A stretch of DNA of 43,553 nucleotides from Calditrichota bacterium. Lineage in GTDB: Bacteria; Zhuqueibacterota; Zhuqueibacteria; Thermofontimicrobiales; Thermofontimicrobiaceae. Position numbers and translations under genes: made by a program. The stretch is from contig JAADFU010000188.1 in NCBI GenBank assembly GCA_013152715.1, positions 1 through 43,553 of the forward strand, given 5' to 3'. Under the pieces are notes generated by a model. That model did no database searches and had not been told where the DNA came from. It saw only the letters and a program-made list of their open reading frames with translations. Positions within the stretch are counted from its first letter, which is position 1, and the number at the start of each line of letters is the position of its first letter. This document shows positions 2,902 to 28,290 of the stretch, piece by piece.

Positions 2902-2950
2902 AGCAATCCTGATTTTGGTTTCGAATGATGTGTTTCGATCTTTCTCATAA

Positions 2951-3008
2951 CTCACACAAAGCCTCAAAAACACAAAGATTTCTTTGTGTCACCGTGTCTT
3001 TGTGTGAG
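2951..3008. repeat. Hairpin repeat, cacaaag/ctttgtg family, copy 2
   Basis: CTCACACAAAG at 2951-2961 pairs with CTTTGTGTGAG at 2998-3008 over 11 bp. An inner 8-bp pair (CACAAAGA/TCTTTGTG) is separated from the outer stem by an unpaired stretch. It sits between the membrane-anchored protein gene and the kinase gene, and might end transcription of the first, but it has no T-tract. Confidence 0.7.
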
Positions 3009-7813: not shown

Positions 7814-8845
7814 TTATTCCAACTCAACTTCAATCAATCTCGGAAAATATTCCTCGAATTCAACACAGGTGAGATAGATAATTTTCCCGTTTTTTCTTTT
7901 GTATTCCGGATGCTCTTTTCCGGCGTACACCAGAGGCCCTCCGTAAACGAGCGGATTGCGCAGCGGAACTTTTGGCGTCCGGAGCGTGACCGGCGCGCTC
8001 CAGGGACCCCAGGGCGTCGGAGATGTTCGCCCCACAACGAGACCTGTGATGTCCAGAGAATGCACTGCCAGATAGCATCCAAGATATTCGTTAAAAGAAA
8101 CCGACATTTCTGTGGGCATTCCCTCCATTATTGAGATAGCTTTTGACCGATCCGGACTCCAGCGAGGCTCCTGAGAAACGAGATATTCATAGTACGAAGG
8201 ATACGCCAGGCTATCAGGCCTGACCCGCGCCAGCGCACACAAATGTTTTCCGTTTTGCAAATAGGAGCCGTACAAATAGACATAATTTTCTTTCTCATCA
8301 ATTAAAACCGCCACGCCATAGCTCGGTTCGTCTTTTTGCCACAGAATTGTAGATCCGTTTTCTTTGATGCGCTGAAACTCCAGATGAGGATAATTTGCCA
8401 CAGCCAGTCCGCTTCCTGCAACATCAAATTTATAAGGCCATACTCCTTCTTTTAAAATTTTTACGCGAATGTAGTACCAATACACTTTTCCCCGCCAAAA
8501 ACATCCGTGCATGCCCCAGATACGATATTTCTCGTGATCTTCATCCGGTTCCAAAGGAATCAATTGCCGAATTTGACCCGACTTGTCTGTCAAATAGTGA
8601 AAATCTTTCAGTCCGTTCGAGGCATCTCTGTCTCGACAAATCAGACCAGAATTATTGGGCATCTGTTCGATAACGCGGCCGCCGATCTCATTGAAATGGC
8701 CGATAAAAGTATCGCCGAAAAGCCAGAGTGACTCGTTCGGCTTGATGGGAATGGAATAAGCGCCATCCTGGCCTATCATTTTGAGATCATTTTCAGCAAA
8801 TAAAATTCCCAGATCGCGGCTATTTTTAACTTTTAATTTTTTCAT
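7814..8845 (-). CDS. DUF4185-type beta-propeller protein
   Basis: A 343-residue protein without signal peptide, so probably cytoplasmic. It has the DUF4185 pattern: GAYSIPI followed by LWLFGDTFIG near the N-terminus, repeated W/Y-rich blades (RIWGMHGCFWRGKVYWYY), EMSVSFNEYLGCYLAVHS and a late blade ending in HPEYKRKNGKIIYLT. The family is built like five-bladed glycosidase propellers, but no activity is established for most members. It lies 44 bases downstream of the GH38-like gene and is likely co-transcribed, which hints at a role in glycoside processing. A second, secreted DUF4185 protein is encoded at 23230-25161 and shares the YSIPI...FGDTFIG block. The ATG at 8845 lacks a strong Shine-Dalgarno sequence. 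Confidence 0.8.
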   Translation of the reverse strand: MKKLKVKNSRDLGILFAENDLKMIGQDGAYSIPIKPNESLWLFGDTFIGHFNEIGGRVIEQMPNNSGLICRDRDASNGLKDFHYLTDKSGQIRQLIPLEPDEDHEKYRIWGMHGCFWRGKVYWYYIRVKILKEGVWPYKFDVAGSGLAVANYPHLEFQRIKENGSTILWQKDEPSYGVAVLIDEKENYVYLYGSYLQNGKHLCALARVRPDSLAYPSYYEYLVSQEPRWSPDRSKAISIMEGMPTEMSVSFNEYLGCYLAVHSLDITGLVVGRTSPTPWGPWSAPVTLRTPKVPLRNPLVYGGPLVYAGKEHPEYKRKNGKIIYLTCVEFEEYFPRLIEVELE

Positions 8846-13126: not shown

Positions 13127-14074
13127 TTAAAATCCAAAAGTTGCGGTAATTCTATTCACACCGCCCATGATTTCGCCATATTCGCTGAAAGAATAATCCA
13201 ATTGACCGGCGACACCCAAAATTTTCTGCTTAATTCCGGCGCCGAACGAATAATTTCCCAGATCAGCGCCCATGCGATAACCGCCGCGAAAATAGATCAA
13301 ATTCATCAATCCCCATTCGAGACCAAAATTTACGCGCTCATTGTTGTCGGTCGGATGGAGTAAGTCTACCGCCAGCGTTAACTGACTAAAATCGGAATGA
13401 AAAATATCGTCCGCTACTCCGACTTTGAAAATCAGCGGCATACGAAATTTATCGCGCAGAAAGCGAATGTCCGGTCCAAAATGCTGAGCGCTCACCGCCA
13501 GGGTCAAATGGCGAAATCCCGTAAAATAAATCGCGCCGATATCGACCAGTACATTTTGAAAAGAATCCTGATCCAGTTGTTCTCTCACATAGCGAATTTG
13601 TCCTCCCATTGCCAATTTATTTGTAAATCTCCGCGCCACAGCAAGACCAATGGCGATGTCGTTCGCGCTCACCATTCTTCCGGTGCCGTCTTGCATAGTC
13701 ACTGTCGTTTCCTCGAAATCAGGAATACCCATGTAAATTGCGCTGATGCCCACGGTGATTCTGTTTTTCAGGTTGTACACGGCAGCAAACGCGTTGATGT
13801 CAATATCCAGCAGCCAGGTCGCGTGAGAAAAAGTAGCTTCCGCATGGTCGATGTGGGCGATTCCTGCCGGATTCCAAAAAATAGAATTTGCGCCTTTGGA
13901 AACGCCGAGCGCGGCCTCGCCCATGGCAGACTCCCGGGCGCCAATACCGATTTTCAAAAATTGCAAACCTGCCGTGCCCGCTTTGTTGAAATCAAAGCCG
14001 TAGTTGAATTCAGTTTGCGCCATCAAAGGCAAAGCAATAATCAGCATTAAAATTAGCAAAATTTTTATTTTCAT
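13127..14074 (-). CDS. PorV/PorQ-family outer-membrane protein
   Basis: A 315-residue protein with a signal peptide (MKIKILLILMLIIALPLMAQ) followed by the PorV/PorQ-family start (AGLQFLKIGIGARESAMGEA, SIFWNPAGIAHID). The rest is alternating beta strands ending in aromatic-rich ITATFGF, as in 14-stranded barrels of the FadL superfamily. PorV shuttles type IX secretion substrates to the surface attachment complex in Bacteroidota; many relatives in other FCB lineages lack a tested role. GGGAG lies 7 bases before the ATG at 14074, which is preferred over an upstream TTG at 14080. It is 45 bases downstream of a T9SS-sorted protein gene and in line with a TonB-dependent receptor gene, suggesting one surface complex. 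Confidence 0.88.
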   Translation of the reverse strand: MKIKILLILMLIIALPLMAQTEFNYGFDFNKAGTAGLQFLKIGIGARESAMGEAALGVSKGANSIFWNPAGIAHIDHAEATFSHATWLLDIDINAFAAVYNLKNRITVGISAIYMGIPDFEETTVTMQDGTGRMVSANDIAIGLAVARRFTNKLAMGGQIRYVREQLDQDSFQNVLVDIGAIYFTGFRHLTLAVSAQHFGPDIRFLRDKFRMPLIFKVGVADDIFHSDFSQLTLAVDLLHPTDNNERVNFGLEWGLMNLIYFRGGYRMGADLGNYSFGAGIKQKILGVAGQLDYSFSEYGEIMGGVNRITATFGF

Positions 14075-14119
14075 AACCAAACTCCCGAATGAATTTTCGG
14101 ATTAAATTTTTGTCCAATT

Positions 14120-15952
14120 TTATTTGATCAAAAGAAGCGTTCCTTTGGCATTTCCGACGTCGGATTCCACCGTGTACAGGTAAATTCCTGCCGCTGTCTT
14201 CTGTCGGGAATCGCTGAGTTGATCCCAGACTTCTTCGCCAGAGCCCGGATTATTGTGCTCCAGTGTGCGCACCAGATCGCCGCTGACGGTGTAAATTCGA
14301 ATCGTACACACCGCGGGCAAATTCGTGAAAACAATGGAATTTTCTTCCCCGGCAGTAGGCAGACCGGAAACCAGACGGAACGGATTGGGAAAAACACTGA
14401 CGTTCAGCGTATTTTCCGCCGGAGTTCTCGCCGTCACCAATGCCTGCGCATTGATGTTCGTCATGCCGCTTTCGTGTCCGCTGGAATCAATTGAAGTTAC
14501 AGCGTAAAAATACCCTACGCCAACCTGTACGGTATTATCTTTGTATTTCCATTTGTTGAGGTCGCGATCAAAAAATCGGCTGATGTCCGTACTTCGCGCT
14601 ACTTTGATGTCTTTCAATTTTTTGAAAGGCCCGATATAGGAACGATCGCTGCGATAAACGCGATATATTTTTAAACCGTTGCGCCCGGTTTGCGGATTAA
14701 TCCAGTTCTCCACTTCTTTATCCCAGGTGATGACAATTTCTTGCGACGATGGCAGGACGAAAAATTCCAATTCCGGCGCTGGCGGTGCCAAGGCATCGGG
14801 CACGTAATTTTGGTCATACAATTTTTTCGCCCGATCGTAGGTGTTTTTCAATGAATCCAGCCCGGCAGGCAATTCCGGCTGCGCCGCCAGACCTTTGACG
14901 GCCTCGGACATGGGAAGTCCATTCACCGCTTCCACGATGACAATTTTCACCGAATCATTGGGAGCCAAATCGTAAGGGCCCAATCCTTCCAACATGAACG
15001 GCGACAAAACTTCTCCGGGAACTAATTGATCCATTAGCGAACGATCCGAACCGTTGAGAATGGCGTACATATTTGATTCGCTCTGGTTGGCAAGAGAGAG
15101 ACGCTGCACATTATTCAAAACCTGCGCGTAAAAGACTGTCGCCGGTTGTTCGCTTCCGTCTTTGGCTGGATCTGCGTAAAGAGGAGCAAACCCGGCGTAG
15201 CCCGTAGTGCGCAACTCATCTCTTTTGTCCCAATAATTTCCCCAGCTCCAGGTTGTTTCAAAACTGGGCTGGTAATCGTAAGCGTAAAGCAGTTTCCGCG
15301 GCTCATCGTAGCCGACAATTTCATCGTCCACGTTGCTGTTATCGCCCCAAAATCCCTGAACCATGACATCCTGATAACTGGGACGAATCAAATAAGGAAA
15401 GCCGAAATAGACATCCGTCAGAACATCCGCAGTAGTATTTTTGCAATAATATTCAAAAATGATAAAATCGGCGTACGCGGGATAGCTCCAGGCGCGACTC
15501 ACTCGGCGCACTTCAATCCCTCTGCTGGTGATCCAATGAGCTGTGATTATTTCCTCTGCTTCATTGGGATTAAAATTTTCCGAACCGTTGAAATTTTCCG
15601 TTTCGACCATGTCGAAAAATGTTCCCTGATCCACATAAGTGAATGGTCCCATTTCATCGAGGAAAACTGATCCGTCGGGATTTTTGCCGCCGACCCAGAA
15701 ACCGCCGCCCTGCGAGTAAGAGCGCTGTTCGTTTTTGCTGGGCAGAACCGCGGGACCGCCAGGCCAGTCCATTGACGGATAAAATTGAAAATCAGAAAAT
15801 CTGCCGCCGATCTGACCGTTGTCTTTCACGGTATCCCACAATCTGCCGCGATCGTGGATTTTGAATAAAGGCTCACGATACTGACTGATTGCTTGAGAGA
15901 GCAAAATCACTGAAAAAATTGCTGTCATAAAAATTACATTTTTTATTTTCAT
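14120..15952 (-). CDS. Exported protein with FN3-like and type IX sorting domains
   Basis: A 610-residue exported protein. A signal peptide (MKIKNVIFMTAIFSVILLSQ, cleaved near AISQ) is followed by a large beta-rich region (about 30-390) of a type common beside TonB receptors in KSB1/Calditrichota-like genomes, with no recognised enzyme motif. A fibronectin type III-like domain lies around 395-500 (SSQEIVITWDKEV, GLKIYRVYRSD, YFYAVTSIDSSGHESG). The end is a Por sorting domain (SVFPNPFR, IRIYTVSGDLVRTLEH, TAAGIYLYTVES, GTLLLIK). The ATG at 15952 has GGAG 6 bases upstream; a longer reading to 16003 would overlap the TonB receptor gene. It sits 16 bases after that receptor gene and may act as its surface partner, an inference. 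Confidence 0.87.
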   Translation of the reverse strand: MKIKNVIFMTAIFSVILLSQAISQYREPLFKIHDRGRLWDTVKDNGQIGGRFSDFQFYPSMDWPGGPAVLPSKNEQRSYSQGGGFWVGGKNPDGSVFLDEMGPFTYVDQGTFFDMVETENFNGSENFNPNEAEEIITAHWITSRGIEVRRVSRAWSYPAYADFIIFEYYCKNTTADVLTDVYFGFPYLIRPSYQDVMVQGFWGDNSNVDDEIVGYDEPRKLLYAYDYQPSFETTWSWGNYWDKRDELRTTGYAGFAPLYADPAKDGSEQPATVFYAQVLNNVQRLSLANQSESNMYAILNGSDRSLMDQLVPGEVLSPFMLEGLGPYDLAPNDSVKIVIVEAVNGLPMSEAVKGLAAQPELPAGLDSLKNTYDRAKKLYDQNYVPDALAPPAPELEFFVLPSSQEIVITWDKEVENWINPQTGRNGLKIYRVYRSDRSYIGPFKKLKDIKVARSTDISRFFDRDLNKWKYKDNTVQVGVGYFYAVTSIDSSGHESGMTNINAQALVTARTPAENTLNVSVFPNPFRLVSGLPTAGEENSIVFTNLPAVCTIRIYTVSGDLVRTLEHNNPGSGEEVWDQLSDSRQKTAAGIYLYTVESDVGNAKGTLLLIK

Positions 15953-15968
15953 AACGAACTCCAATTTT

Positions 15969-18941
15969 TTATTGAAAATCGTAACGGATACCAAAGAAAA
16001 CACTGCGCGGCGGAAAATAAATCATGTAACTGATATTGTAGCCATCCGCGTCAATGAAGGTCGGCTCGCCTGTTTTGACAAATTTTTCCATGGCGCCACC
16101 GTCGTACGGATACGGGTGTCCCCAGGTTTTCACCGTCTTGGTGTTGAATAAATTTGTGGCTTTCACGTAAAAAGTAAAAGTGTGCGCACCCAATGTCACA
16201 TATTTGTTGAATTTCAAATCCCAGGTCTGCCGCGCCGGAAAACGATGATTATCAACCAAGTCCGGCGGATCGTCCGGTTCAAGAAATGTGAACGCCTGTC
16301 CGCTGACGTAGCGGTAGAGCAAGTTGCAATCGGAATTGCCGAAAATTTTTGAAATCACCGGAAAATTCCAGTCTTGGGGATATTGCATGAAAAAATTCAC
16401 CCGCAAGATATGCGGTCGGCTGAAACTGTTCTCTGTGGGCAACCGATCCGTTGTTTCCACGTACCAATTGTAGGTAATTGTGCCATCTTCGTTAATATGC
16501 ACCTGTCGCGGCGTGGCAGTTCCGCGCATGCTTTTGGAAAAAGAATAATTCAAATTTACCACAAAATCATTGCTGAACAAAGTCTTCAGCGAAACCTCAA
16601 CGCCGCGGGCGTCGCCGTAATCTCCGCCAAAATAACTGGAAAATGGCAAATTCGAAACCCTGCCAAACGGATCGATGCCGTAAACGCTTTTGTCCAAAAA
16701 ACCGTATTGTTCGGTTTGATCGTAAACATCTTTGTAATAGCCGGTCACATTCACCACAGCCAAATTTTCAAAGTGATGCTTGATGCCCATCTCAAATTGA
16801 ATCGTTTTTTCCGGCTTCAGCGGGTCAATGGTCATGGCAATCACGCGCTCGGGATCCGTGCTGTCCGGCCCCGGGGTAGGGTTATTTTTAATGAAAGGAA
16901 CGGGTCTGAAATAGACCAGTTGGTACTGATAATTAATCGGCGGCATCTGGTAAAAATGGCCGTAGCTGAAGTGGAAAACTGAATTGTCCGTAATGGGAAA
17001 AGAAATTCCCAATCTCGGATTTACGGACACAAATGGTTTTACGCGTTTCCTGGGCTTCGCCAGTACATTTTCAAAGCTCCACTTTTTGTGGCCCAGCGTA
17101 TCGATTCCATCCAGATCAGGGTCGGCATTTTTGTTGTATTCCGGATCCAGCGACGGATTCCACTGAAAGCTGTCCAGTGTGTACCAGTCGCGATCGCCAT
17201 CGAAATAATCCAGACGAACGCCCATATTGAGAATCATGCTCTCGAATTCCATTTTGTCCTGCACGTAAACGCCTAATTGCAGCGGATGAAAAGTTTCATT
17301 CAAACCGCGCACCCGCCAATCTTTGAGAGCATCGCTGAAAGCAGCCAAAACCCAGTTATCCTCTTTGTAAGTGTGATAATGGGTCTCAAAACCGCCTTTG
17401 AATAAATTATTGTGATTAATCTGCCAACTAAACGCTCCGGTCAGGGAGAGATCATTAATCAGATTGTCGCTTTTGGGACTGAACAGATGTGCCAAAAACG
17501 GCTCATCCTCAAAACCGTCGTAGTAATGCCAGCCCCAGACGTCCGGTTTTTTCGACTCGCCCAAAACGCGATAGTGGCTGGGGTTTTCCACAGAACGAAA
17601 CGTGTAAGAGCTCAGCTTTAACTCGTAATACATTTCCGGTTTCAAAATATGCGTCAGTCCGAGACGCTCCTGATAAGTGTAGTTGTCAAGCGTTGTGCCG
17701 TAACCGCGGTAATATTTTGCCTTCAACGGAAAAAATTGCTGGTCATTAGTGGCGTGAGCGTCGTGGCTGAACATGGCGCCGTAACGGACGTTGATATTTG
17801 AAGATGGCACATATTTTCCGCTTAAGTTAGCCGATTGCAATTTGCGGAAAGCCCGCGGTCGGGGCAACTCGTAAGGCATTTCCTTGTATTGGCCCGTGAG
17901 GAAAAATGTCATCTTTTTGATTTCACCGCCGATCAGCGGCAGGAATCTTCCGGGCACAGGCCCCCCGAAAGAAAAGCGAAAATCCTTGTCAGAATATTTG
18001 CGGTAGTCGTAAACCTGCATCCTGCGCTCCGGCGTCCACCACGCCGGGTCGAGATATTTTTCCCCGGTCACACTATCCACCAAAGTGTGGCGTTGGAATT
18101 CAATGTTTTTCATCGGATCGTAGAGATAATCGCCAAAATGACGCTGATGAGCCGGACCGTACTGATAGTCCACAGAAAAAGTGTACTTTTCACTGCCGTC
18201 TCGGGTGATGATATTGACAATTCCCGACTGCGCATCGCCATATTCGGCGTTGAATCCGCCGGTGATCACCTGAATTTCTTTGACAGCCTCGCGATTCACC
18301 TGAGTGAACGAACCGCCGGCATCAGCTTTTCCCTCGTACATGGTAGCCGCTTTAGCGCCGTCAATGTACCAGACCACCTGATCCTGATCTCCGCCGCGGA
18401 CAGAATACCTCCGCTCGCCCTTTCCCAGTCTGCCTTCAACCGGAACGAGGTCGAAAAATACGCCGGTCTGTAGATTAACTTCTTCGGAGACGTCGGTGGC
18501 GACGGATTTTTTCATCTCATCGATTCCCACGACTTCGATGCTGGTCGTCAGATCTTTTTGAATCACCGGTCTTTCCGCGACGACAGTCACCGATGCTCCC
18601 AAATCCACAACTTGTGCGCTCAATCTCACGTTAATTTTTGTTGTTTGGTCCGCACGAACGGTGACATTTTTCACATCGGTCGTGCGGTAGCCCATCATCG
18701 TAATCCGCAGCGTATAATTTCCCGGCGGCACCGACAGGATTGTGTAAACGCCGTCCATATCGGAGGCAGCACCCATTGTGGCGCCCAGTATCAGAACATT
18801 GGCGCCGGGCAGAGGTTCGCCGCTTTTGTCATCGACAATTTTACCGGATATTTTTCCGGTGATGCCGGCGAACAGAAAATGTGACGTTAGCATCAGAAAA
18901 GCTGCCAGAAACAACCAGATTTTTTTTCTCTCTCCGGGCAT
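15969..18941 (-). CDS. TonB-dependent outer-membrane receptor with carboxypeptidase-like N-terminal domain
   Basis: A 990-residue receptor. After a signal peptide (LFLAAFLMLTSHFLFAG) comes a carboxypeptidase-regulatory-like domain at about residues 28-110 (GKIVDDKSGEPLPGANVLI), then a plug at about 125-250 (RYSVRGGDQDQVVWYIDGA, GGFNAEYGDAQSGIVNIITR), and a beta-barrel to the end, closing in FFGIRYDFQ. This is the SusC/RagA-like layout for TonB-driven uptake of glycans or other large ligands, but no SusD gene is present. AGGAGG 7 bases before the ATG sets the start, 17 bases after the HAD gene. T9SS-sorted and PorV-like genes follow directly. The substrate cannot be told; nearby glycosidase genes favour a saccharide. 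Confidence 0.93.
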   Translation of the reverse strand: MPGERKKIWLFLAAFLMLTSHFLFAGITGKISGKIVDDKSGEPLPGANVLILGATMGAASDMDGVYTILSVPPGNYTLRITMMGYRTTDVKNVTVRADQTTKINVRLSAQVVDLGASVTVVAERPVIQKDLTTSIEVVGIDEMKKSVATDVSEEVNLQTGVFFDLVPVEGRLGKGERRYSVRGGDQDQVVWYIDGAKAATMYEGKADAGGSFTQVNREAVKEIQVITGGFNAEYGDAQSGIVNIITRDGSEKYTFSVDYQYGPAHQRHFGDYLYDPMKNIEFQRHTLVDSVTGEKYLDPAWWTPERRMQVYDYRKYSDKDFRFSFGGPVPGRFLPLIGGEIKKMTFFLTGQYKEMPYELPRPRAFRKLQSANLSGKYVPSSNINVRYGAMFSHDAHATNDQQFFPLKAKYYRGYGTTLDNYTYQERLGLTHILKPEMYYELKLSSYTFRSVENPSHYRVLGESKKPDVWGWHYYDGFEDEPFLAHLFSPKSDNLINDLSLTGAFSWQINHNNLFKGGFETHYHTYKEDNWVLAAFSDALKDWRVRGLNETFHPLQLGVYVQDKMEFESMILNMGVRLDYFDGDRDWYTLDSFQWNPSLDPEYNKNADPDLDGIDTLGHKKWSFENVLAKPRKRVKPFVSVNPRLGISFPITDNSVFHFSYGHFYQMPPINYQYQLVYFRPVPFIKNNPTPGPDSTDPERVIAMTIDPLKPEKTIQFEMGIKHHFENLAVVNVTGYYKDVYDQTEQYGFLDKSVYGIDPFGRVSNLPFSSYFGGDYGDARGVEVSLKTLFSNDFVVNLNYSFSKSMRGTATPRQVHINEDGTITYNWYVETTDRLPTENSFSRPHILRVNFFMQYPQDWNFPVISKIFGNSDCNLLYRYVSGQAFTFLEPDDPPDLVDNHRFPARQTWDLKFNKYVTLGAHTFTFYVKATNLFNTKTVKTWGHPYPYDGGAMEKFVKTGEPTFIDADGYNISYMIYFPPRSVFFGIRYDFQ

Positions 18942-18958: not shown

Positions 18959-20362
18959 CTATGTCAGTTTAAAAATTGTATTTTTATCGAGAAAAAAATG
19001 ATGTACCAGCATGGCTTCGGGCAAACCGCCATGCAGAATGTGACTCGCATAACTGAGCTCGTGCCCCTGCGTGTCGGCAAAAGGGACTGCCACACACAAA
19101 CCAATTCCCGCAGTACGAATGGCAATTGTCCCGGACTCACTGTCTTCAAATCCAATCACATTATCGTAGTCTCTTTTGTCGATTCCCAGACGATGCAGCG
19201 CCAGACTGTACAAATCCCGGTGCGGCTTCAGTCGAATTTCGCTGGAATCGGAGGCAGTAATTACTTCATCAAAAACAGCGGCGTAACTTTCGAATTTTTC
19301 CGAAATCATTTCTTTATTGGCATCACTCACAGGCCAGCGCTGCACTTCATTTTTCATCACTTTAAAAACCTGACTCAAAACAATATCCGCTTCGTAAAAA
19401 ATCGATGATGTCACGACTGCTACCTTGACCGGATTTCGCTGAAAATATTTTCCGATCGCGCTCAGCACGGCAGGTAATCTTTTCACATCAACTTCACGAA
19501 CATCCACAAGTTGATTTTTTGCCAGACTTTCCGCGAGCCCAGCAAGGAATTGCGCCAATTCTTCTCCCAGCCAGCCCTTGATTGCCGCAAGAAAAATTCC
19601 CACTCCCGGCATTGGTTCAATGAAACTTTTGTGACCGGCTGGAATGAGCGCTGTCAAATTCTCCGTGTCATTTTTTTCTATTTTGAACAAAATTTCATGG
19701 TATCGCTGATAATAAACTTCAATCGCCGCTCTGACCTGATCAGTGAAAGATCTGATGGCAATTTCTTCCGCCCGTTTTTGAAAATTTTTCTCCAATTCTT
19801 TTGGGAAAAATATTTTCGGCGATTTTTTTGCGTCTTCAAACCATTGTTTAATGCGCTGGTCAAAAATCAAATCGCCCAAACCAAAATAGCGCAGACTCGC
19901 CAGCGCTTCCCGTTTGCGTCCCTCGTCTCTGCCAAAAGCCAGCGTTAGCAGACTGGAGCGCAAATAAGCGGATCGAAAAAAATACGAATCCTGCTTTTTA
20001 TTGTAAGCGCGAATGAGATATTCCACGTGTTTCGTGGTACTGTTTCCGATGATGTGGGGGTAATCTTTTTCGCGATCCAGGCCTTTCCATTCTTCCCGAC
20101 GCATTTGCCCCGTGAAACAGCGTACCATGTGCTCCAAAGAATGCAGACAAAGCGGTTCTGTCGTGGTAGTTGTTCCGTCCATGTCCTGCACCACGGCGAC
20201 GATCTTTTTTCTCGGTTCAGTTATTTTCAGCGCTAACGGACAAATATCGAAATCCGCGAAAATGTAATTTGGGTTTTCAATTGCGACAAATTCTTCGCCA
20301 AGTTGAGAAATGAATTCACTTGCTTGAATATTAGTTAATATTTTGTCGTTTTTATTTCTCAT
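18959..20362 (-). CDS. HAD-superfamily phosphatase with a very large cap
   Basis: A 467-residue HAD-superfamily hydrolase. Motif I is VVQDMDGTTTT (Asp60 and Asp62), motif II is VAVVTSS in the second half, the Lys motif is RLKPHRD and motif IV is GFEDSESG. It resembles beta-phosphoglucomutase/phosphatase-like members, but about 250 residues lie between motifs I and II against roughly 100-150 in C1-capped relatives, and about 50 residues precede motif I. The insert is helical and charged. A sugar-phosphate phosphatase or mutase role is possible; the reaction is not predictable. No signal peptide is seen. It is first in line before the TonB receptor (17-base gap), probably as one operon. The start at 20362 has only a weak AGG upstream. 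Confidence 0.8.
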   Translation of the reverse strand: MRNKNDKILTNIQASEFISQLGEEFVAIENPNYIFADFDICPLALKITEPRKKIVAVVQDMDGTTTTTEPLCLHSLEHMVRCFTGQMRREEWKGLDREKDYPHIIGNSTTKHVEYLIRAYNKKQDSYFFRSAYLRSSLLTLAFGRDEGRKREALASLRYFGLGDLIFDQRIKQWFEDAKKSPKIFFPKELEKNFQKRAEEIAIRSFTDQVRAAIEVYYQRYHEILFKIEKNDTENLTALIPAGHKSFIEPMPGVGIFLAAIKGWLGEELAQFLAGLAESLAKNQLVDVREVDVKRLPAVLSAIGKYFQRNPVKVAVVTSSIFYEADIVLSQVFKVMKNEVQRWPVSDANKEMISEKFESYAAVFDEVITASDSSEIRLKPHRDLYSLALHRLGIDKRDYDNVIGFEDSESGTIAIRTAGIGLCVAVPFADTQGHELSYASHILHGGLPEAMLVHHFFLDKNTIFKLT

Positions 20363-20382
20363 TTTGGTCGCCTAAAACAATC

Positions 20383-20510: not shown

Positions 20511-20518
20511 GCAAAATT

Positions 20519-23233
20519 TTAGTTGCTAAAAATAATGATTCTTACTTTTCCTAGCAATCCAGAGTCAACAACCTTCCCCCATTTTTCACCAAAGAGATAT
20601 TTTTGCCGCACCAGCATGTAATGGTTAGCCGGCGTATTGGTCACACGAATTTCCAGTTCATTTTTCCCGGCGCGCACAAAAGGCGTTAAATCAAATTCGT
20701 AGGGTTGCCAGCAGCGAACTCCGGCTAATTTTCCGTTCACGCGCACTTCGGCGACCTCGCGAACTTTTTCAATTCTCAAAATAAAAGCGCTTTTCTTTTT
20801 AAAATATTCATCAGGCAACTCAAATTCAGAACGATAAATTCCTGTGCCGGAAAAATTGGGATGCGCCGGCGCTGAATTCTGCGGCGCTGTCCAACTGCCA
20901 ATAGTACGAATTTCTTCGGGAAAAGAATTGTCTGCCGGGGCGAATTTCCAATTTCTGCTCAATGCAATTTCCCGTTTTTCCCTGGGGAGAGGTGTCACTA
21001 TCATTTGACCCGATTCTTTTTTCACCACAAACAATTTGGAGCCGTAAGGCGCAAATTTCACAGAAATATTTGTCCGGCTTTTCTCACTTTCGGCGTGCTG
21101 CGACACCTGTCTAACTCCGGTCTCGGGGTCCCAGACTTCAACAGTTCCCGTAACGGTTAGTGAAATTGTCCCCTGCCAAGGAACGCTGTCATTGTTGGAA
21201 ATGAAAAAAATTTCCGCATCATCCAGACTTCCGTGCAGGGCTTCAATCGCCGAATTTCGGGGAAAAATTTCCACGTCAAGCGGAACAGTGCGTTTGATTG
21301 TTTGCAGCAGCGAATCCGTGTCTGAAAAATAGTTTGGGATAATATTTTCAGTTGAAATTTTTCGCAGACGTTCCGCGGGAGAAAATTTATCGCCCTTCAG
21401 CAAAAAACGAACAGTTTTCCCGAACCAGAGAACTGTTCCGCCCTTTTCTTCAAATTGCTTTATTTTCTCAAATGCCTCCCGGGTTACTACTTCAGCAAAT
21501 GGCATGAGCAAAACGTCAAATTCCAAATTTTCCGCGCCGGTGCTGATGTGTAATTTTGTATTTCCGTTTTTGGCGGATATTTTTGTCTTGCGCGCCAAAA
21601 TGTCATCATTGACAAAAAGAAAATCGATTTGATGTTGCAGGAGGAAATTTCCCAGTGCGGTGAAATTTTTGTCGAGAGAATCTGCTGCCGCTTCCTCGTC
21701 GACGGACAAAACAGCGCGAAGCGACAAATTCGGACGATACAAAGCGATTTTTGGCTTGATCTTCACTTTTGTCAAAATAGTGCTCAATCTTTCCAGATAA
21801 TCGGTGAAAAAATTCATGTATTTCCACTGGGTATTCTGATAAAATAGAGAAGGCGGTATTTCCATGCGCCAGTTGTCATTGAATGTGGTAAAATAAAATG
21901 AGCTCAATTGAAAACGATTAACTCCGCGAGCGAACAACCAATCAGCGACTGCTTTCATTTTTGCCAGCGACAAATCCCAGCCGTAAACGCCAAACACTTC
22001 GCAATAGATTTCATTTTCCCCAAGCAAGTGCGCCGCAGACGACGCCAGTTTTGGCGTCAAATTTGTCCTGTCCCAATTGTACACTTCGTCGCAGCCGGGG
22101 ATGTCAGAATATCTCATCACCTGAAAATAGTCGCCTTGCAGCAGCGCGTCGTATTTCATGGTCTCTTCATGCACAGGCTGGATGTTCAATTTGATGTCAT
22201 GGTTAGCGCACCATTTTTGCAGCGGCTCCAGATAAGATTTACTGAATAGTTGCCCCAGAAAATCATAAAAATCCACCCGCACCGGAATAGTTTCCTCGCC
22301 GATATTTTCCCAGAGTGCCGGCAAATAGCGACGCAAGTCGTACTTTTTTATTTTTTTGAATTCCTCAAACAATTTTGGCGTGAACGGAACTGCTCCCGGA
22401 TTGATCAAATAAGGCCGCAGATCGCAGTAAAGCCCGGGCTCGTCCGTGATAATCGCTGCGATCGGATCGCCGAAATATTCAGGCATCAGGCGATAATATT
22501 TCTCGTGAGTCAATTCAATGAATTTCTGAACGGTCGCCGGATTCAGCAAATCAACGTAGCCGGTTTCCTGGAACGTCGGATGAAATTGGCACTGCTGCTC
22601 GTAAAAAATTTCCACTTTCCAGTCGCCTGCCGGAACCTGCCATTTGAATCTATTGCCATTTTTTTCAATGTTCCATTCCCGCCAACTAATGATTTTTGTT
22701 TTTCCACTCTTCTTCTGGCAAATAATCACAGTTACGGTTTTCTCCGGTAGGTCAAGGGAAATACTTTTGGGGCCTGAAACTTCGTGAATTTCTCTCCCCA
22801 GACACCGTGCGTGCAATTCAGGATTTTCCCGCAAGACTTCTCCGCCGGCATAGCCGCTGGGCCAGAGAATTTCATCGTACAGCCAGATTTTCAAGCCTAA
22901 CTCCTTTGCCACATCGCAGGCAAATTTCACCCGCTCGAACCAGAGGTCAGACAAATACTTTATCGCCAGTCCTTCCCACGCCATAATTACGGCGCCGGAC
23001 ACTGTGCCGCTTTTTTTCATTTGAGTTAGTTGCCAGCGAATCGAATCCGGATTCATTTCGCCATTCCAGAACCAGTAGGCAATGGGCAGATATTTTTCAT
23101 CGGGTTGTTGAAATTGCTGATAAACTTCGTCGGCAGACTCTTTCGATTTTGTGCCGCAACCTGACAACACAATTATCAATAAAAAAAGTATTGTCGGGAT
23201 TGCAAACGAAAATTGTGGGATCAATTTTTTCAT
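20519..23233 (-). CDS. GH106-like glycoside hydrolase lipoprotein
   Basis: A 904-residue exported lipoprotein: LFLLIIVLSGCG is a clear lipobox. The start of the mature part (YWFWNGEMNPDSIRWQLTQM, then WLYDEILWPSGYAGGE) follows GH106 alpha-L-rhamnosidase-type proteins, which open with W.WNG and a TIM-barrel-like region. IITDEPGLY around residue 265 is a candidate active-site stretch. A beta-sandwich of the GH2 sugar-binding type closes the protein (GIYRSEFELPDEYF, VAEVRVNGKLAGVRCWQPYEFDL). It would act in the periplasm or on the outer membrane on a plant- or algal-type glycan; rhamnose specificity is family-based only. The ATG at 23233 overlaps the TGA of the upstream DUF4185/T9SS gene (ATGA), and no Shine-Dalgarno sequence is visible, so translation is probably coupled. 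Confidence 0.8.
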   Translation of the reverse strand: MKKLIPQFSFAIPTILFLLIIVLSGCGTKSKESADEVYQQFQQPDEKYLPIAYWFWNGEMNPDSIRWQLTQMKKSGTVSGAVIMAWEGLAIKYLSDLWFERVKFACDVAKELGLKIWLYDEILWPSGYAGGEVLRENPELHARCLGREIHEVSGPKSISLDLPEKTVTVIICQKKSGKTKIISWREWNIEKNGNRFKWQVPAGDWKVEIFYEQQCQFHPTFQETGYVDLLNPATVQKFIELTHEKYYRLMPEYFGDPIAAIITDEPGLYCDLRPYLINPGAVPFTPKLFEEFKKIKKYDLRRYLPALWENIGEETIPVRVDFYDFLGQLFSKSYLEPLQKWCANHDIKLNIQPVHEETMKYDALLQGDYFQVMRYSDIPGCDEVYNWDRTNLTPKLASSAAHLLGENEIYCEVFGVYGWDLSLAKMKAVADWLFARGVNRFQLSSFYFTTFNDNWRMEIPPSLFYQNTQWKYMNFFTDYLERLSTILTKVKIKPKIALYRPNLSLRAVLSVDEEAAADSLDKNFTALGNFLLQHQIDFLFVNDDILARKTKISAKNGNTKLHISTGAENLEFDVLLMPFAEVVTREAFEKIKQFEEKGGTVLWFGKTVRFLLKGDKFSPAERLRKISTENIIPNYFSDTDSLLQTIKRTVPLDVEIFPRNSAIEALHGSLDDAEIFFISNNDSVPWQGTISLTVTGTVEVWDPETGVRQVSQHAESEKSRTNISVKFAPYGSKLFVVKKESGQMIVTPLPREKREIALSRNWKFAPADNSFPEEIRTIGSWTAPQNSAPAHPNFSGTGIYRSEFELPDEYFKKKSAFILRIEKVREVAEVRVNGKLAGVRCWQPYEFDLTPFVRAGKNELEIRVTNTPANHYMLVRQKYLFGEKWGKVVDSGLLGKVRIIIFSN

Positions 23234-25161
23234 CGCAACAGCAACATTTTTTGTGAATAGATTTTCCGGTGAATTTTTAATTGGCACAGATAAATTCCGG
23301 AGCTCATATTTTTTCCTTGAAAATCCTTGCCATTCCAACGCAGAAAATATTTTCCTGGCGCTTTGAAGCTATCGTACATTAGAGAATTTACCTTTTCGCC
23401 AAGTAAATTAAAAATTTCCACGGAAACGACTCCGCCATCTCGAAGCGAGAAAAAAATTGTGGTTCCGCCATTGAACGGATTGGGAAAATTGTGCAACATG
23501 TCAAATTCTTCCGGGATTGACACCCCTTTTTGCACATCGACAGGCGTCCCCTCGTCGAATAATTTTAGCCAAATAAAACGAGGCCTGTAAATATCAGCGC
23601 GATGCATCAAATCATAGAGGCTGAAAGTGTTGACATTATAGCTAATCAGCATTACATTTTCCGACGAAAGATGAGGGTGAGCCTTGGCGTTGTAAACAAA
23701 AATATCGGGATCAGTTCCCGGTTCCGGGCAATCGTAAACAGACAGCGCCGCCTGAAACGGTCCTACCGGCGATTCTCCAAATTTGACTTTCACTTTTCCG
23801 CCCGCTTCAAAAACCAGCAAAAATCTCCCGTCTTTCAGAGGGCTGACGCTGAATTCCTGAGAAATGCCATTGGTAATCACAGCGCAATCGGCGATATTGT
23901 TCGACCAACCCGTTCCGTTCCAAAATTCCCATTGAGAAAAATCTGCAAAATTTTCCGGCAGTACGCGCGAAGCGACAAGTCCTTTGTTTCCGAATGAATT
24001 ACGGGGACCGTACACGTAAATGTAGCCATCAGGATTCGGATTCCCGGAAAAATCTGTCATCGGCATGACTGCCTGCCCCAGAACAAACTGCATTCCTGCC
24101 GCCTGGTTCTGATAGAACAGCGGCGCGTCGACGTGACGATAATTGATGATTTGATCCGCTGAATCCAATTCAAAAGAAATCAGCGTTGTGCCTACAATGC
24201 GGAAATAATTATTTTCGTAATCCAGCCGCAAACCAAAAACGTAAATTTTATCATTCAAAGAAATTCCGTCCATGGGCCAGATCCAATCGCCGGGCTTCGA
24301 GTTCGGCGTGTCCGCTTCAAACATGGCTGCGGGGATGGTCTGACTGGTGGTTTTCCAATAAAAACTGAGGCTCTCGGGAATTGCTTCTTTGCCCCGCAAC
24401 AATGCCACTGTATTTCTGATCATTTTTGCATTCACTCGCTGATCATTTTCGCCCACTTCGCCGATAAAAGTGTCGCCAAAAACAAAAATTGTCTTTTCAT
24501 TTTTATCAGGAGAAGGGTAATCGTAACCGGAAATCGGGATCGAATACACGGCATCGCTGCCAGTCCAACCGTTTTTTCGATGAAACAATTCGCTCCATTC
24601 CGGCGCTGGTTCGGCACGCAGCGCTTCTGTTGTGTCGCAGATATCGGGAATGCCAATCGGGTGCGGATACGAAAAAGGCGACCAACCGGTGCAAATCAAA
24701 TCGCGCGTGGCTTTTGTCGCCAGATATGCCAGCGAAAAACATCCCTCGCGCTCTCCGACCTGCCAGTGAGTATCGATTTCCACGCTCGGATTATTAGTGT
24801 ACGTGTAGCCGGTGTCTGAAATCAAAGCGATCCAGTTCATTCCATCGCCAAATTCCGCCGCCGGATAGCACGCTTCGGCCGAGTCGGACCATTCCGGAGA
24901 ATAAAACATCTCGCCGCTGCCAACGCGGCCGGCGTACTCGCCGGACAAAAACTGCCAGTCATCGGGAACGAGAACACAGAGCACGCCTTTGTGGGGATTT
25001 GTCGTTTCATCAATATTGTCGGAAATGGTCACTTTTATTTCTATGACCTCTCCGGGCGCTGCGTGAGCCGGCTGCTCGATGCGATCGAATTTGCATCGAA
25101 CGAAAAAAGAAACGATCACCAACGACAGCGCGAAGATTAACTTATTCTGTTTTATTTTCAT
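23230..25161 (-). CDS. Exported DUF4185 protein with type IX sorting domain
   Basis: A 643-residue exported three-part protein. The signal sequence ends FFVRC, a poor lipobox. Residues 30-170 repeat the module of the small T9SS protein at 11944-12795 (HKGVLCVLVPDDWQFLSGEY; ACYP..FGDGMNWIALISDTGY). A DUF4185 propeller follows (AVYSIPI, TIFVFGDTFIGEVG, AKAHPHLSSENVMLISYN), related to the cytoplasmic protein at 7814-8845. The last 90 residues are a Por sorting domain (MLHNFPNPFNGGTTIFFSL, VEIFNLLGEKVNSL, SSGIYLCQL, KMLLLR). GGAG five bases before the ATG at 25161 fixes the start; longer readings overlap the corrinoid gene. It sits 34 bases after the corrinoid gene and overlaps the GH106-like gene, so the three look co-transcribed. 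Confidence 0.87.
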   Translation of the reverse strand: MKIKQNKLIFALSLVIVSFFVRCKFDRIEQPAHAAPGEVIEIKVTISDNIDETTNPHKGVLCVLVPDDWQFLSGEYAGRVGSGEMFYSPEWSDSAEACYPAAEFGDGMNWIALISDTGYTYTNNPSVEIDTHWQVGEREGCFSLAYLATKATRDLICTGWSPFSYPHPIGIPDICDTTEALRAEPAPEWSELFHRKNGWTGSDAVYSIPISGYDYPSPDKNEKTIFVFGDTFIGEVGENDQRVNAKMIRNTVALLRGKEAIPESLSFYWKTTSQTIPAAMFEADTPNSKPGDWIWPMDGISLNDKIYVFGLRLDYENNYFRIVGTTLISFELDSADQIINYRHVDAPLFYQNQAAGMQFVLGQAVMPMTDFSGNPNPDGYIYVYGPRNSFGNKGLVASRVLPENFADFSQWEFWNGTGWSNNIADCAVITNGISQEFSVSPLKDGRFLLVFEAGGKVKVKFGESPVGPFQAALSVYDCPEPGTDPDIFVYNAKAHPHLSSENVMLISYNVNTFSLYDLMHRADIYRPRFIWLKLFDEGTPVDVQKGVSIPEEFDMLHNFPNPFNGGTTIFFSLRDGGVVSVEIFNLLGEKVNSLMYDSFKAPGKYFLRWNGKDFQGKNMSSGIYLCQLKIHRKIYSQKMLLLR

Positions 25162-25195
25162 CCGAACTCCGGGAACGATTGACAAAAATAGATTT

Positions 25196-25831
25196 TCAAA
25201 CTCGAAGCAGTCTTTTAACGACATCCACGGCGGTGACGAAATCCTCTGCGTAACCGTCCGCGCCAATCAAATCAGCGAAATGCTGCGTAATCGGCGCCCC
25301 GCCAATCACGATTTTCACTTTATTTTTCAAATCAGTCGCATGAATTGTATCCACAGTAATTTTCATCATGTGCATGGTGGTCGTCAGCAGCGCGGAAATT
25401 CCGATCAAATGCGCCGATTGCTCGCGCGCCGCATGAACAAATTTCTCCGGCGACACGTCAACGCCGAGATCGATGAGCTGAAAGCCTGCGCCTTCAAGCA
25501 TCATGCTTACGAGATTTTTGCCGATGTCGTGCAGGTCGCCTTTGACGGTTCCCACAATGATTTTTTTATTGTTTCTGGAATTTGTATTTGCAAGATAAGG
25601 CCGAAGGACGTCAGCGCCGGCATGCATGGAAGAAGCGGCAACAAGGACTTCAGGAATGTAAATTTCGTTATTTTTGAACAAAACGCTGATTCGATCCATT
25701 CCCGAAATTAAACCGTTGTGTAAAATGTCCAGTGGCGGGACATTTGCCTCAAGCGCCATTCGGATCAATTTCTCTACCTCGGCGCTGTAGCCGCGACAAA
25801 GATTGTCAGCGATTTCTGTAAAAAAGTCCAT
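25196..25831 (-). CDS. Corrinoid (B12-binding) protein of a methyltransferase system
   Basis: A 211-residue protein with the two-domain build of MtaC/MtbC-type corrinoid proteins. Residues 1-85 are the helical cap (ILHNGLISGMDRISVLFKNN, IYIPEVLVAASSMHAG); the Rossmann-like B12-binding domain follows, with the DxHxxG motif at Asp99-His101-Gly104 (VKGDLHDIGKNLV) supplying the lower cobalt ligand, then GVDVSPEKFV and IGGAPITQHFADLIGADGYAED. It carries a methyl group between two methyltransferases in the cytoplasm. No methyltransferase gene adjoins it; the UROD-family genes of this window are more than 12 kb away. It is preceded by a PocR-AraC regulator gene and a promoter with a candidate operator, and followed by the DUF4185/T9SS and GH106-like genes. 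Confidence 0.93.
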   Translation of the reverse strand: MDFFTEIADNLCRGYSAEVEKLIRMALEANVPPLDILHNGLISGMDRISVLFKNNEIYIPEVLVAASSMHAGADVLRPYLANTNSRNNKKIIVGTVKGDLHDIGKNLVSMMLEGAGFQLIDLGVDVSPEKFVHAAREQSAHLIGISALLTTTMHMMKITVDTIHATDLKNKVKIVIGGAPITQHFADLIGADGYAEDFVTAVDVVKRLLRV

Positions 25832-25857
25832 GTTTGAAATACCGGCATTGGTTTTTC

Positions 25858-25887
25858 ATTCTACCGTTAGTGTACAAAACTTTGCAA
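25858..25887 (-). promoter_or_regulatory. Candidate sigma-70 promoter of the corrinoid gene
   Basis: TTGCAA (25882-25887) and TAGAAT (25858-25863) on the minus strand are separated by 18 bases. Transcription would start about 20 bases before the corrinoid ATG. Both hexamers match the consensus in 4-5 of 6 positions. Confidence 0.5.
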
Positions 25888-25913
25888 TAAAAATCTTGTG
25901 CAATAATGTTCAA

Positions 25914-25931
25914 TTTTGGTAAAATCTTGCT
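25914..25931. promoter_or_regulatory. Candidate operator upstream of the corrinoid gene
   Basis: The plus-strand sequence TTTTGGTAAAATCTTGCT matches TTTTGGTCAAATCTTGTT before the adjacent PocR-AraC gene (27273-27290) in 16 of 18 positions. A half-copy AAAATCTTG lies at 25890-25898. The site is 27 bases upstream of the predicted -35, a normal place for AraC-family activation. Confidence 0.5.
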
Positions 25932-25952
25932 ATGCTGCCTGATTTTCGAGAA

Positions 25953-27254
25953 TCAATAAACAGGTTGACGTAATCGGCGAAAAGTCTTTGGCGTAATGCG
26001 TTCCACTTTTTTGAAAACTTTGGTAAAATAGCTTTGATCCGGATAGCCAACTTCGAGGGCAATCTGAGACAAAGAGAGGTCGGTATCGCGTAAGAGGGCT
26101 TTGGCAGCTTCGATTCGGGTTTTCGTCAAAAATTCGCCAAAAGTAGTATTCAGATCGTCCTTGAATAAGTGGCTTAAATAAAAAGGACTTACAAAAACAT
26201 GTTTTGCAACAGTTTCCAGCGCCACCTTTTCGGAATAATTTTCGCGAATATAGTTACACGCTTTTTCCAGTATGTAAAAATGTTGCTGATTTCGTGTTTG
26301 GTAAATGGTATCGCAAATAATTTCCATCATTTTCACCACCCAGAAACAGAGGGACTGGTGATCCGAAATATCGGAAAGTTCAGAGATGAACTGGTAGCGC
26401 AAGCCAAAAATACTCTCCGGATTAGCGCCTTCTTCGACAACAGCTCGCGTTAAAATTGCCAGCAGTTCCAGGACATGAGCTTTCATCAATTCCAGATTGA
26501 TGGGATTGTACAACATCACCTGCGCCAAAAACTCGTTGAGAATCGTTTTGGCGCCGATTTTATCCCCAAGGCGTACGAGCGTGATGAGCTCTTTTTCTTT
26601 TTTAGGATTGAGAATGGGAAACAAAGACGGCGAAGGCGCATCGCTGTTCCGTTTGTAGCGCTGAATTTCCTCGGCCACCTGGGCTTGTTCGCGGTAAGAT
26701 TGGCGCCGCGCCGTAAGCAAACCCAGATCCGGAATGGAGAAAAAATCCGCAATGGAAAATATCAATTCCGCGGCGACTTTGACTCTTTTTTCAGGAATCA
26801 CCGGCACTTGCGACAGCGCTGATTTTAACGCCCGCATTTTGTCTTTTGAAAAAGACTTTCCATGTCCAGAATTTTTCAAAAAACTCTCGCCGACGCGCCT
26901 CATCAAAAGCGGTGCCGCAACCAATCCGCCGATAAATTTTTCATTGTACAAAATGGGAACAGCAATTTGAATGAATTTGTGCGGACATTCCGAAATGTAG
27001 GCGTCTCCCCAGCGCAGGGCTTCCAAACAGGAATCTTTTCGATATTCCCGGCATTGACTCATCGAATGGGAATCTTCTTGAAAAATTTGACAGGGTAGCG
27101 GCTTCCGCTGCTGATTTGCAGCGGAAAAAACCACCTCGCCGTAACTGTTGATCACATGAATATTGATACCCGTCAATTCATTGAAATAGGTCAAAAATCT
27201 ATTCAGCGAGCGAGTGCCCTGACTGTCGCGGATTAATTCGATGAGATCAATCAT
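25953..27254 (-). CDS. PocR-domain AraC-family transcriptional regulator
   Basis: A 433-residue regulator. Residues 4-170 form a PocR sensor domain (LNRFLTYFNELTGINIHVI, then Cys55, Cys68, Cys76 and Cys90, and IQIAVPILYNEKFIGGLVAA); PocR domains bind small organic ligands such as diols and methylated compounds, and the Cys set may hold metal. A helical linker follows, and two AraC helix-turn-helix motifs end the protein (VALETVAKHVFVSPFYLSHLFK; LSQIALEVGYPDQSYFTKVFKK). PocR-AraC regulators often sit beside corrinoid methyltransferase genes, as here: the corrinoid gene is next on the same strand. Near-identical 18-base sites precede this gene and the corrinoid gene, suggesting autoregulation plus activation of the operon. 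The start at 27254 has a weak GGT. Confidence 0.9.
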   Translation of the reverse strand: MIDLIELIRDSQGTRSLNRFLTYFNELTGINIHVINSYGEVVFSAANQQRKPLPCQIFQEDSHSMSQCREYRKDSCLEALRWGDAYISECPHKFIQIAVPILYNEKFIGGLVAAPLLMRRVGESFLKNSGHGKSFSKDKMRALKSALSQVPVIPEKRVKVAAELIFSIADFFSIPDLGLLTARRQSYREQAQVAEEIQRYKRNSDAPSPSLFPILNPKKEKELITLVRLGDKIGAKTILNEFLAQVMLYNPINLELMKAHVLELLAILTRAVVEEGANPESIFGLRYQFISELSDISDHQSLCFWVVKMMEIICDTIYQTRNQQHFYILEKACNYIRENYSEKVALETVAKHVFVSPFYLSHLFKDDLNTTFGEFLTKTRIEAAKALLRDTDLSLSQIALEVGYPDQSYFTKVFKKVERITPKTFRRLRQPVY

Positions 27255-27272
27255 ATCGATTTACCAATTTGT

Positions 27273-27290
27273 TTTTGGTCAAATCTTGTT
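27273..27290. promoter_or_regulatory. Candidate operator upstream of the PocR-AraC gene
   Basis: TTTTGGTCAAATCTTGTT lies 19-36 bases before the ATG of the regulator and matches the site at 25914-25931 in 16 of 18 positions. Its closeness to the start codon suits autorepression. Confidence 0.45.
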
Positions 27291-28267: not shown

Positions 28268-28290
28268 TTTTTCCTTCGGCTAATTTTTTT

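What the first reader, a model, noticed from the sequence alone, without database searches (positions are those of the whole stretch)
20519..27254. Corrinoid protein co-transcribed with exported glycoside-processing genes: possible O-methyl glycan or glycoside use
A B12-binding methyl carrier, without an adjacent methyltransferase, is followed by an exported DUF4185 protein (34-base gap) and a GH106-like lipoprotein (ATGA overlap), under a PocR-AraC regulator. The window also holds three UROD-family genes, a GH38-like protein, a sugar kinase and a TonB receptor. One explanation is that exported enzymes free a methoxylated sugar or glycoside and the corrinoid system takes its methyl group. I know of no described system with exactly this make-up.
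Basis: inference. Interest (0 to 1): 0.6.

Follow-up and report, generated by a model that had tools for sequence, protein, structure and literature searches.

The report
Glycan-use locus with corrinoid methyl-transfer genes
This stretch is a sugar-polymer degradation locus from an uncultured bacterium that also carries vitamin-B12-type methyl-transfer genes, and the same pairing recurs in related genomes, which suggests, but does not prove, that the cell strips methyl groups from methylated sugars without oxygen.

Summary
A PocR-AraC regulator, a canonical corrinoid methyl carrier, an exported DUF4185 protein (34-base gap) and a GH106-like lipoprotein (ATGA overlap) lie as described. They head a 27-kb one-strand locus with a HAD phosphatase, TonB receptor, PorV, GH38, a second DUF4185, sugar kinase and UroD genes. 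DUF4185 is no longer unknown: it is GH183, endo-D-arabinanase, and both copies keep the catalytic residues. The UroD protein at 243-1469 is not HemE. It is nearest the MtaA methyltransferases and lacks the His-Cys-Cys zinc site of S-methyltransferases. Its orthologues (55-79%) sit with GH183/GH38/ABC sugar importer/MtaB (one genus), galactokinase and mutarotase, GH172, GH78, or directly after a corrinoid gene. The PocR-corrinoid-GH183-HAD order recurs in a second family. In two 'Chlamydiota' MAGs the order is sugar ABC importer-corrinoid-UroD, followed by a GH106 relative, with GH78 between in one. So the glycan/corrinoid link is real and recurrent, and methyl-sugar demethylation is the best reading. 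Substrate and chemistry are untested: methanol (MtaB) or S-methyl sugars remain possible. The corrinoid gene itself is not next to GH183 in three other relatives. New variant of known parts; no description of it found in the open-access papers searched.

The parts
25953..27254 (-). PocR-sensor AraC-family regulator; a sigma-70-like promoter match lies at 27324-27296
   Evidence: Pfam PocR 75.8 bits, HTH_18 83.3 bits; promoter pattern 11/12, consensus match only; PocR-type gene next to a corrinoid gene also in L113, L120, L121 and several Bacillota/Verrucomicrobiota loci
25196..25831 (-). corrinoid methyl-carrier protein (MtaC/MtvC/MtgC type)
   Evidence: B12-binding_2 + B12-binding; DLHDIG motif; nearest solved 1y80 cobalamin-binding protein, E 9.4e-64; NCBIfam: methyltransferase corrinoid families, all below their cut-offs
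23230..25161 (-). exported DUF4961-DUF4185 (GH183) protein with T9SS-type C-terminal tail; lipobox-like Cys near the N-terminus
   Evidence: Pfam DUF4185 63.7, DUF4961 33.4, Por_Secre_tail 27 bits; catalytic D203, D230, E436 invariant in 12 homologues; PDB 8hhv endo-alpha-D-arabinanase E 4e-07
20519..23233 (-). GH106-like lipoprotein
   Evidence: Pfam Glyco_hydro_106 121.7 bits; ATGA overlap; PDB 6q2f GH family, E 4.9e-25
18959..20362 (-). conserved HAD phosphatase / beta-phosphoglucomutase-like protein with a large cap insertion
   Evidence: HAD_2 32.9 bits; DxDGT motif and others invariant, 48-73% identity in 9 relatives; model pLDDT 86, nearest CbbY/beta-PGM
15969..18941 (-). TonB-dependent receptor with CarboxypepD_reg domain
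   Evidence: Pfam; adjacent to HAD gene in several relatives
14120..16003 (-). exported protein without Pfam match, between the receptor and PorV genes
13127..14080 (-). PorV-like outer-membrane protein
   Evidence: Pfam PorV 38.5 bits
11944..12795 (-). exported DUF4961 protein with T9SS tail
   Evidence: Pfam DUF4961 85.5 bits
8889..11663 (-). GH38 alpha-mannosidase-like enzyme without signal peptide
   Evidence: Pfam GH38 N/mid/C; PDB 3lvt E 5.5e-103
7814..8845 (-). second DUF4185 (GH183) protein, no signal peptide
   Evidence: Pfam 99.3 bits; catalytic triad aligned
3890..7521 (-). two ABC transporter subunits (exporter type)
   Evidence: Pfam; kept in G059, G060, G063, G064 loci
3052..3861 (-). 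membrane-anchored protein conserved beside the ABC genes
   Evidence: no Pfam; 43-49% homologues in same place
1702..2973 (-). PfkB-family sugar kinase
   Evidence: Pfam PfkB 105.8 bits; beside UROD1 in G060 and G004
243..1445 (-). UROD1, UroD-superfamily methyltransferase-like protein
   Evidence: URO-D 82 bits; MtaA-type NCBIfam above HemE, all below cut-offs; only PDB sequence hit is MtaA 4ay7; model pLDDT 95, best fold hit MtaA 4ay8; HSC motif, third ligand Cys absent
1..87 (-). first 29 residues of a third UroD-like gene, cut by contig end
38307..39344 (-). UROD2, UroD-like gene outside the locus; HSD in place of HxC
   Evidence: URO-D 55.6 bits

Best explanation
A glycan-utilisation locus with a one-carbon arm. 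Shown from sequence: surface GH183 and GH106 enzymes, a TonB receptor/PorV import system, intracellular GH38 and GH183, a sugar kinase and a HAD sugar-phosphate-type phosphatase, together with a corrinoid methyl carrier and UroD methyltransferase-like genes, under a PocR-AraC regulator. Inferred: the surface enzymes cut a rhamnose-, mannose- or arabinose-containing glycan whose sugars carry O-methyl groups. The fragments are imported and trimmed, a UroD protein (UROD1 or its paralogues) moves the methyl group to the Co(I) corrinoid protein, and the freed sugar is phosphorylated and catabolised. RACo (contig C179) reactivates the carrier. A second methyltransferase (the MtaA-thioredoxin fusion on C76 or the homocysteine methyltransferase beside RACo) passes the methyl to a thiol such as homocysteine.
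For: (1) UROD1 orthologues lie in sugar loci: G020-G022 (71-73%) with GH183 x2, GH38 and sugar ABC importer, with receptor and HAD gene further along; G060 (79%) with PfkB, GH183 and ROK kinase; G004 (68%) with PfkB, galactokinase and mutarotase; G068 (61%) directly after GH172; G039 (55%) next to GH78; G065 (62%) directly after a corrinoid gene. UROD1 is within 7 kb of a GH183 in 3 of 6 lineages that have both, about 2e-5 under random placement. (2) PocR-corrinoid-GH183-HAD order recurs in G064, and the two corrinoid proteins form one clade, 100/99. (3) Two 'Chlamydiota' MAGs: in L062 sugar importer-corrinoid-UroD-GH78-GH106, in L046 importer-corrinoid-UroD with a GH106 relative further on. 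(4) Other UroD genes of this genome sit with MFS/zinc-dehydrogenase/xylose-isomerase-like genes (C140) or a ROK kinase (C151), and with the C55 corrinoid gene near a beta-helix protein and a BNR-type protein. (5) Helper set present: RACo, three carriers, MtaA-thioredoxin fusion, homocysteine methyltransferase. (6) UROD1 lacks the His-Cys-Cys zinc site that marks S-methyltransferases; O-enzymes lose one or both Cys (PMC10418091).
Against: No activity data. The locus corrinoid gene and UROD1 are 24 kb apart. In G059, G060 and G063 the GH183-GH106 module lacks a neighbouring corrinoid gene. Corrinoid genes are in 78 of 82 genomes of the phylum, so co-occurrence says nothing, and many are beside non-sugar genes. 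UROD1 keeps one Cys of the zinc site. No folate-type methyltransferase II was found (only a DHPS). MtaB in the related locus points to methanol.
Confidence: 0.48

Rival explanations
1. Methanol arm: the carrier serves an MtaB methanol:corrinoid methyltransferase, the UroD proteins act as MtaA-type acceptor methyltransferases, and methanol comes from methyl esters or methyl glycosides of the glycan.
For: MtaB (530 bits) lies in the syntenic locus of G021 and once in this genome on C172 (560 bits); RACo-corrinoid-MtaB-UroD clusters occur in G026-G028.
Against: No MtaB in the window or near its corrinoid gene; on C172 MtaB sits beside a heavy-metal-ATPase-like gene and an exported protein; UROD1 and most UroD proteins here lack the Cys ligands of MtaA; no carbohydrate esterase seen in the locus.
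Confidence: 0.2
2. Unrelated methyl metabolism: the corrinoid protein serves general methyl transfer (methionine/thiol methylation) and sits in the locus only by rearrangement.
For: Carrier is nearly universal in the phylum; many paralogues sit in housekeeping contexts (DegT, GHMP kinase, NadD, BamD); in G058 the HAD and CheD genes are 279 bp apart without the PocR-corrinoid-GH183-GH106 block, so the block may be insertable.
Against: Clade-specific PocR-corrinoid-GH183 order kept in a second family; repeated UroD-sugar operons.
Confidence: 0.17
3. S-methyl sugar use: the methyl comes from a methylthio sugar, such as the 5-methylthioxylose cap of mycobacterial lipoarabinomannan (own knowledge), which would fit GH183 and GH38.
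For: GH183 enzymes act on arabinogalactan and lipoarabinomannan (PMC10115798, PMC10509167); GH38 and GH106 would suit mannose and rhamnose parts.
Against: UROD1 orthologues lack the third ligand Cys of S-type zinc sites; GH172/GH116 partners are not in the window, one GH172 is on another contig.
Confidence: 0.06
4. Sensor role: the corrinoid protein works with PocR as a cobalamin or methyl-status sensor for the operon rather than as a methyl carrier.
For: PocR and corrinoid genes are adjacent in several phyla; the carrier shows weak likeness to CarH.
Against: The protein lacks a DNA-binding domain and is of the methyl-carrier type; in other loci the same PocR-corrinoid pair stands with MeTr and RACo genes.
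Confidence: 0.06

Closest known systems
Corrinoid-dependent O-demethylases of acetogens and archaea (MtvABC, OdmABCD, MtoABCD)
   Same: corrinoid carrier of the same family, UroD-superfamily methyltransferase I, RACo activator
   Different: genes scattered, no folate methyltransferase II found, partners are glycan enzymes not aromatic-compound genes
Methanol system MtaABC
   Same: MtaC-like carrier, MtaA-like UroD folds, MtaB present in the genome and in the related locus of one genus
   Different: no MtaB in the window; UROD1 lacks the second MtaA Cys ligand
Type 1 mlp gene clusters (PMC10418091)
   Same: several MtaA-like UroD proteins, corrinoid protein and activator without folate methyltransferase
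   Different: those are compact, His-Cys-Cys and linked to sulfur/selenium genes; here they are linked to sugars
D-arabinan degradation loci with GH183/GH172/GH116 (Dysgonomonas PUL42, Microbacterium)
   Same: GH183 enzymes with conserved Asp/Asp/Glu; GH172 beside a UROD1 orthologue in G068
   Different: no GH172 or GH116 in the window; GH38 and GH106 instead; corrinoid genes added
Aerobic demethylation of 6-O-methyl-galactose by P450 in porphyran users (PMC10033563)
   Same: would solve the same problem, removing a sugar methyl ether
   Different: oxygen-dependent, gives formaldehyde; here an oxygen-free methyl transfer is proposed

Membership tests
Corrinoid O-demethylase system | corrinoid carrier with helical and Rossmann B12 domains and His-on motif | tested here: met
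Corrinoid O-demethylase system | UroD-type methyltransferase I without His-Cys-Cys S-site | tested here: met
   HSC kept, third ligand Cys absent in UROD1 and orthologues
Corrinoid O-demethylase system | methyltransferase I next to carrier gene | tested here: not met
   24 kb apart in the window; adjacent in G065 and L062
Corrinoid O-demethylase system | reductive activator | tested here: met
   one RACo on contig C179
Corrinoid O-demethylase system | methyl-carrier:folate methyltransferase II | tested here: inconclusive
   only a DHPS matches Pterin_bind; a MetH end fragment sits at a contig end next to a MetF-like gene
Corrinoid O-demethylase system | O-demethylation activity | not testable with these tools
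   needs enzyme assay
GH183 (DUF4185) | Pfam DUF4185 over cut-off | tested here: met
   63.7 and 99.3 bits, cut-off 39.5
GH183 (DUF4185) | two catalytic Asp and one Glu | tested here: met
   D203, D230, E436 invariant, matched by motif to residues in PMC10509167; not a structural superposition
GH183 (DUF4185) | endo-D-arabinanase activity | not testable with these tools
   needs assay
Bacteroidota-type PUL | SusC-like receptor plus SusD-like protein | tested here: not met
   receptor present; no SusD Pfam match, an unassigned protein in its place
HemE uroporphyrinogen decarboxylase (for UROD1) | TIGR01464 over its cut-off | tested here: not met
   27 bits against 302.95
Type 1 mlp gene cluster | two or more Mlps, carrier and activator within 2 kb of each other | tested here: not met
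   window gene order and RACo on another contig
Methanol system MtaABC | MtaB beside the carrier | tested here: not met
   MtaB on contig C172, not beside a corrinoid gene

The most novel reading that the evidence does not exclude
UroD-family sugar O-demethylases exist: a B12-dependent, oxygen-free route that removes methyl ethers from glycan sugars (rhamnose, galactose, mannose or arabinose type), built into glycan-utilisation loci across an uncultured phylum and in 'Chlamydiota' MAGs, with the methyl salvaged into thiols or one-carbon metabolism.
Probability: 0.38. Interest if true: 0.82.

Novelty: new variant of a known kind. Interest (0 to 1): 0.58.

Why it matters
O-methyl sugars are common in algal, plant and bacterial glycans and make them hard to digest. 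The sugar demethylation found in the papers searched is P450-based and needs oxygen. An anaerobic corrinoid route would explain how sediment and gut bacteria finish such glycans, would give a function to part of the large unassigned UroD superfamily, and would add a methyl source to anaerobic one-carbon budgets. UROD1 with the C149-type carrier (its G065 orthologue is next to UROD1), or the compact L062 operon, makes the idea directly testable.

Tried and rejected
Cobalamin riboswitch in the window: none, only a tRNA. HemE identity for UROD1: rejected. Reading contig C76's best URO-D hit as HemE: rejected, it is an MtaA-like protein fused to a thioredoxin domain. Broken MetH: first suggested by stops, rejected on reading the locus; the fragment lies at a contig end next to a MetF-like gene. 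Co-occurrence of corrinoid and GH genes as evidence: rejected because carriers are in 78 of 82 genomes. Type 1 mlp cluster: not met. Literature searches for corrinoid demethylation of sugars found nothing, but only open-licence papers are held. An unbiased Pfam census of UroD neighbours against random genes was not run; the enrichment figure covers GH183 only and is crude.
Full report
Setting. The window is the whole of contig C188 of a 4.15-Mb genome bin in 211 contigs, 97.9% complete.

Observation. Start and overlap details are exact: 34 bases between corrinoid stop and DUF4185 start at 25161, ATGA at 23233/23230. Only the third UroD gene is weak: 29 residues before the contig end. All genes from 27254 down to 1 are on one strand.

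What the exported genes are. DUF4185 was given a function in 2023: it is GH183, a retaining endo-D-arabinanase family with two catalytic Asp and one Glu (PMC10115798, PMC10509167). Both window copies keep all three residues, invariant across 12 homologues. One is exported with a DUF4961 domain and a T9SS-type tail; the other has no signal peptide. The specificity of these divergent members is unknown. The GH106-like lipoprotein matches the family at domain level but far below the characterised equivalog cut-off. GH38 is closest to bacterial GH38 structures.

What the methyl-transfer genes are. The corrinoid protein is a normal carrier, closest to 1y80. UROD1 is not HemE: its only PDB sequence hit is MtaA, MtaA models outrank HemE, and the high-confidence model has MtaA as best fold match, though HemE structures follow closely and the overall fit is moderate (TM about 0.6). 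The zinc site keeps His-x-Cys but not the second Cys. PMC10418091 states that S-methyltransferases of this superfamily have His-Cys-Cys, whereas O-methyltransferases lose one or both Cys. This fits, but does not prove, an oxygen-bound methyl donor. The genome has RACo, MtaB, an MtaA-thioredoxin fusion and a homocysteine methyltransferase beside RACo.

Conserved context. The locus is syntenic in pieces across genera. HAD-receptor-unknown-PorV-GH38-DUF4185 recurs in G020-G022 (on two contigs in G022) together with a sugar ABC importer, UROD1 and, at the far end in G021, MtaB. DUF4185-GH106-HAD-receptor recurs in G060, and ABC-ABC-3052-PfkB-UROD1-GH183-...-UroD-ROK on another G060 contig. UROD1 orthologues also lie with galactokinase, mutarotase and PfkB (G004), GH172 (G068), GH78 (G039), and a corrinoid gene (G065). 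More distant UROD1-like genes lie in clusters with GH29 and GH2 (G034) or GH67N-like and GH31 proteins (G036). UROD1 is within 7 kb of GH183 in 3 of 6 lineages having both; random placement gives about 2e-5, a crude figure.

The corrinoid gene. PocR-corrinoid-DUF4185-HAD is repeated in G064 of another family, and in a tree of 102 carriers these two are sisters with 100/99 support, although the G064 branch is long. The C149 carrier of this genome groups with the G065 carrier that precedes UROD1 and with a G062 carrier that has a PfkB homologue nearby, so C149 may be UROD1's own partner. In G059, G060 and G063 the GH183-GH106 module has no corrinoid gene beside it. In most genomes of the phylum carriers stand with DegT/GHMP kinase or with UroD/RACo/MttB/MtaB genes. 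Independent support comes from two 'Chlamydiota' MAGs: L062 has sugar importer, carrier, UroD with an H-x-D site, GH78 rhamnosidase and a GH106 relative of the window protein (27% identity over 759 columns); L046 has the same carrier and UroD with the GH106 relative further downstream.

Mechanism. Shown: the gene content, domains, residues and linkages above. Inferred: that surface GH183 and GH106 enzymes open a methylated glycan, that fragments are imported through the TonB receptor, that UroD proteins demethylate the sugars onto the carrier, and that the methyl goes to a thiol. I give this 0.48. Methanol chemistry is the main rival (0.2), because MtaB is in the related locus and in this genome. 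The exact sugar is open. GH183, GH38 and GH106 together would suit arabinan-, mannan- and rhamnose-containing envelope glycans of actinobacteria, which by my own knowledge can carry O-methyl rhamnose and methylthio-xylose; this is a guess.

Novelty. No paper found in the held library describes corrinoid demethylation of sugars; aerobic P450 demethylation of 6-O-methyl-galactose is known (PMC10033563). The parts are known and the combination appears to be new, hence a new variant of a known kind.

Noticed in passing
L114-L119, L125, L126, L129, L130, L133, L138, L139, L141 (same-phylum corrinoid loci): Across the phylum a corrinoid carrier, usually without any methyltransferase gene nearby, sits beside a DegT aminotransferase, often with a GHMP kinase and HAD gene, in a BamD-NadD-CRP neighbourhood. 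Its role is unexplained.
   Followed up: partly
window 18959-27998; L192, L191: In the same-genus genome G058 the HAD gene lies 279 bp from CheD and next to PfkB, with a second HAD copy beside GH106 and the receptor on another contig. The PocR-corrinoid-GH183-GH106 block looks inserted or swapped at the HAD gene in the window.
   Followed up: partly
L021, L132 (contig C55 and G058:C260): A second corrinoid-glycan type cluster: CobW GTPase, UroD, M14-like peptidase, corrinoid, right-handed beta helix, BNR protein; in G058 preceded by the end of an MtaA-thioredoxin fusion.
   Followed up: partly
window 3052-7521: An exporter-type ABC pair plus a membrane-anchored protein is kept inside this glycan locus in related genera but a sugar ABC importer stands in its place in G020-G022. 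Why an exporter would be there is unclear.
   Followed up: no
window 14120-16003: Exported protein without Pfam match between the TonB receptor and the PorV gene, where a SusD would be expected; kept in the same place in relatives.
   Followed up: no
window 27450-35931: Chemotaxis operon (CheD, CheB, CheR, CheW, MCP, CheA, CheY, STAS) directly upstream of the locus, on the same strand.
   Followed up: no
window 36549-37601 and 40173-41342: Fic/DOC protein with HTH_17, and an N4/N6 DNA methylase, either side of a tRNA at 37986-38058.
   Followed up: no
L035, L036, L039, L041 and other Bacillota loci: PocR-corrinoid pairs in Bacillota stand beside MeTr, RACo or a phosphatase-like protein, so PocR-AraC may be a widespread regulator type for corrinoid methyl systems.
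   Followed up: no
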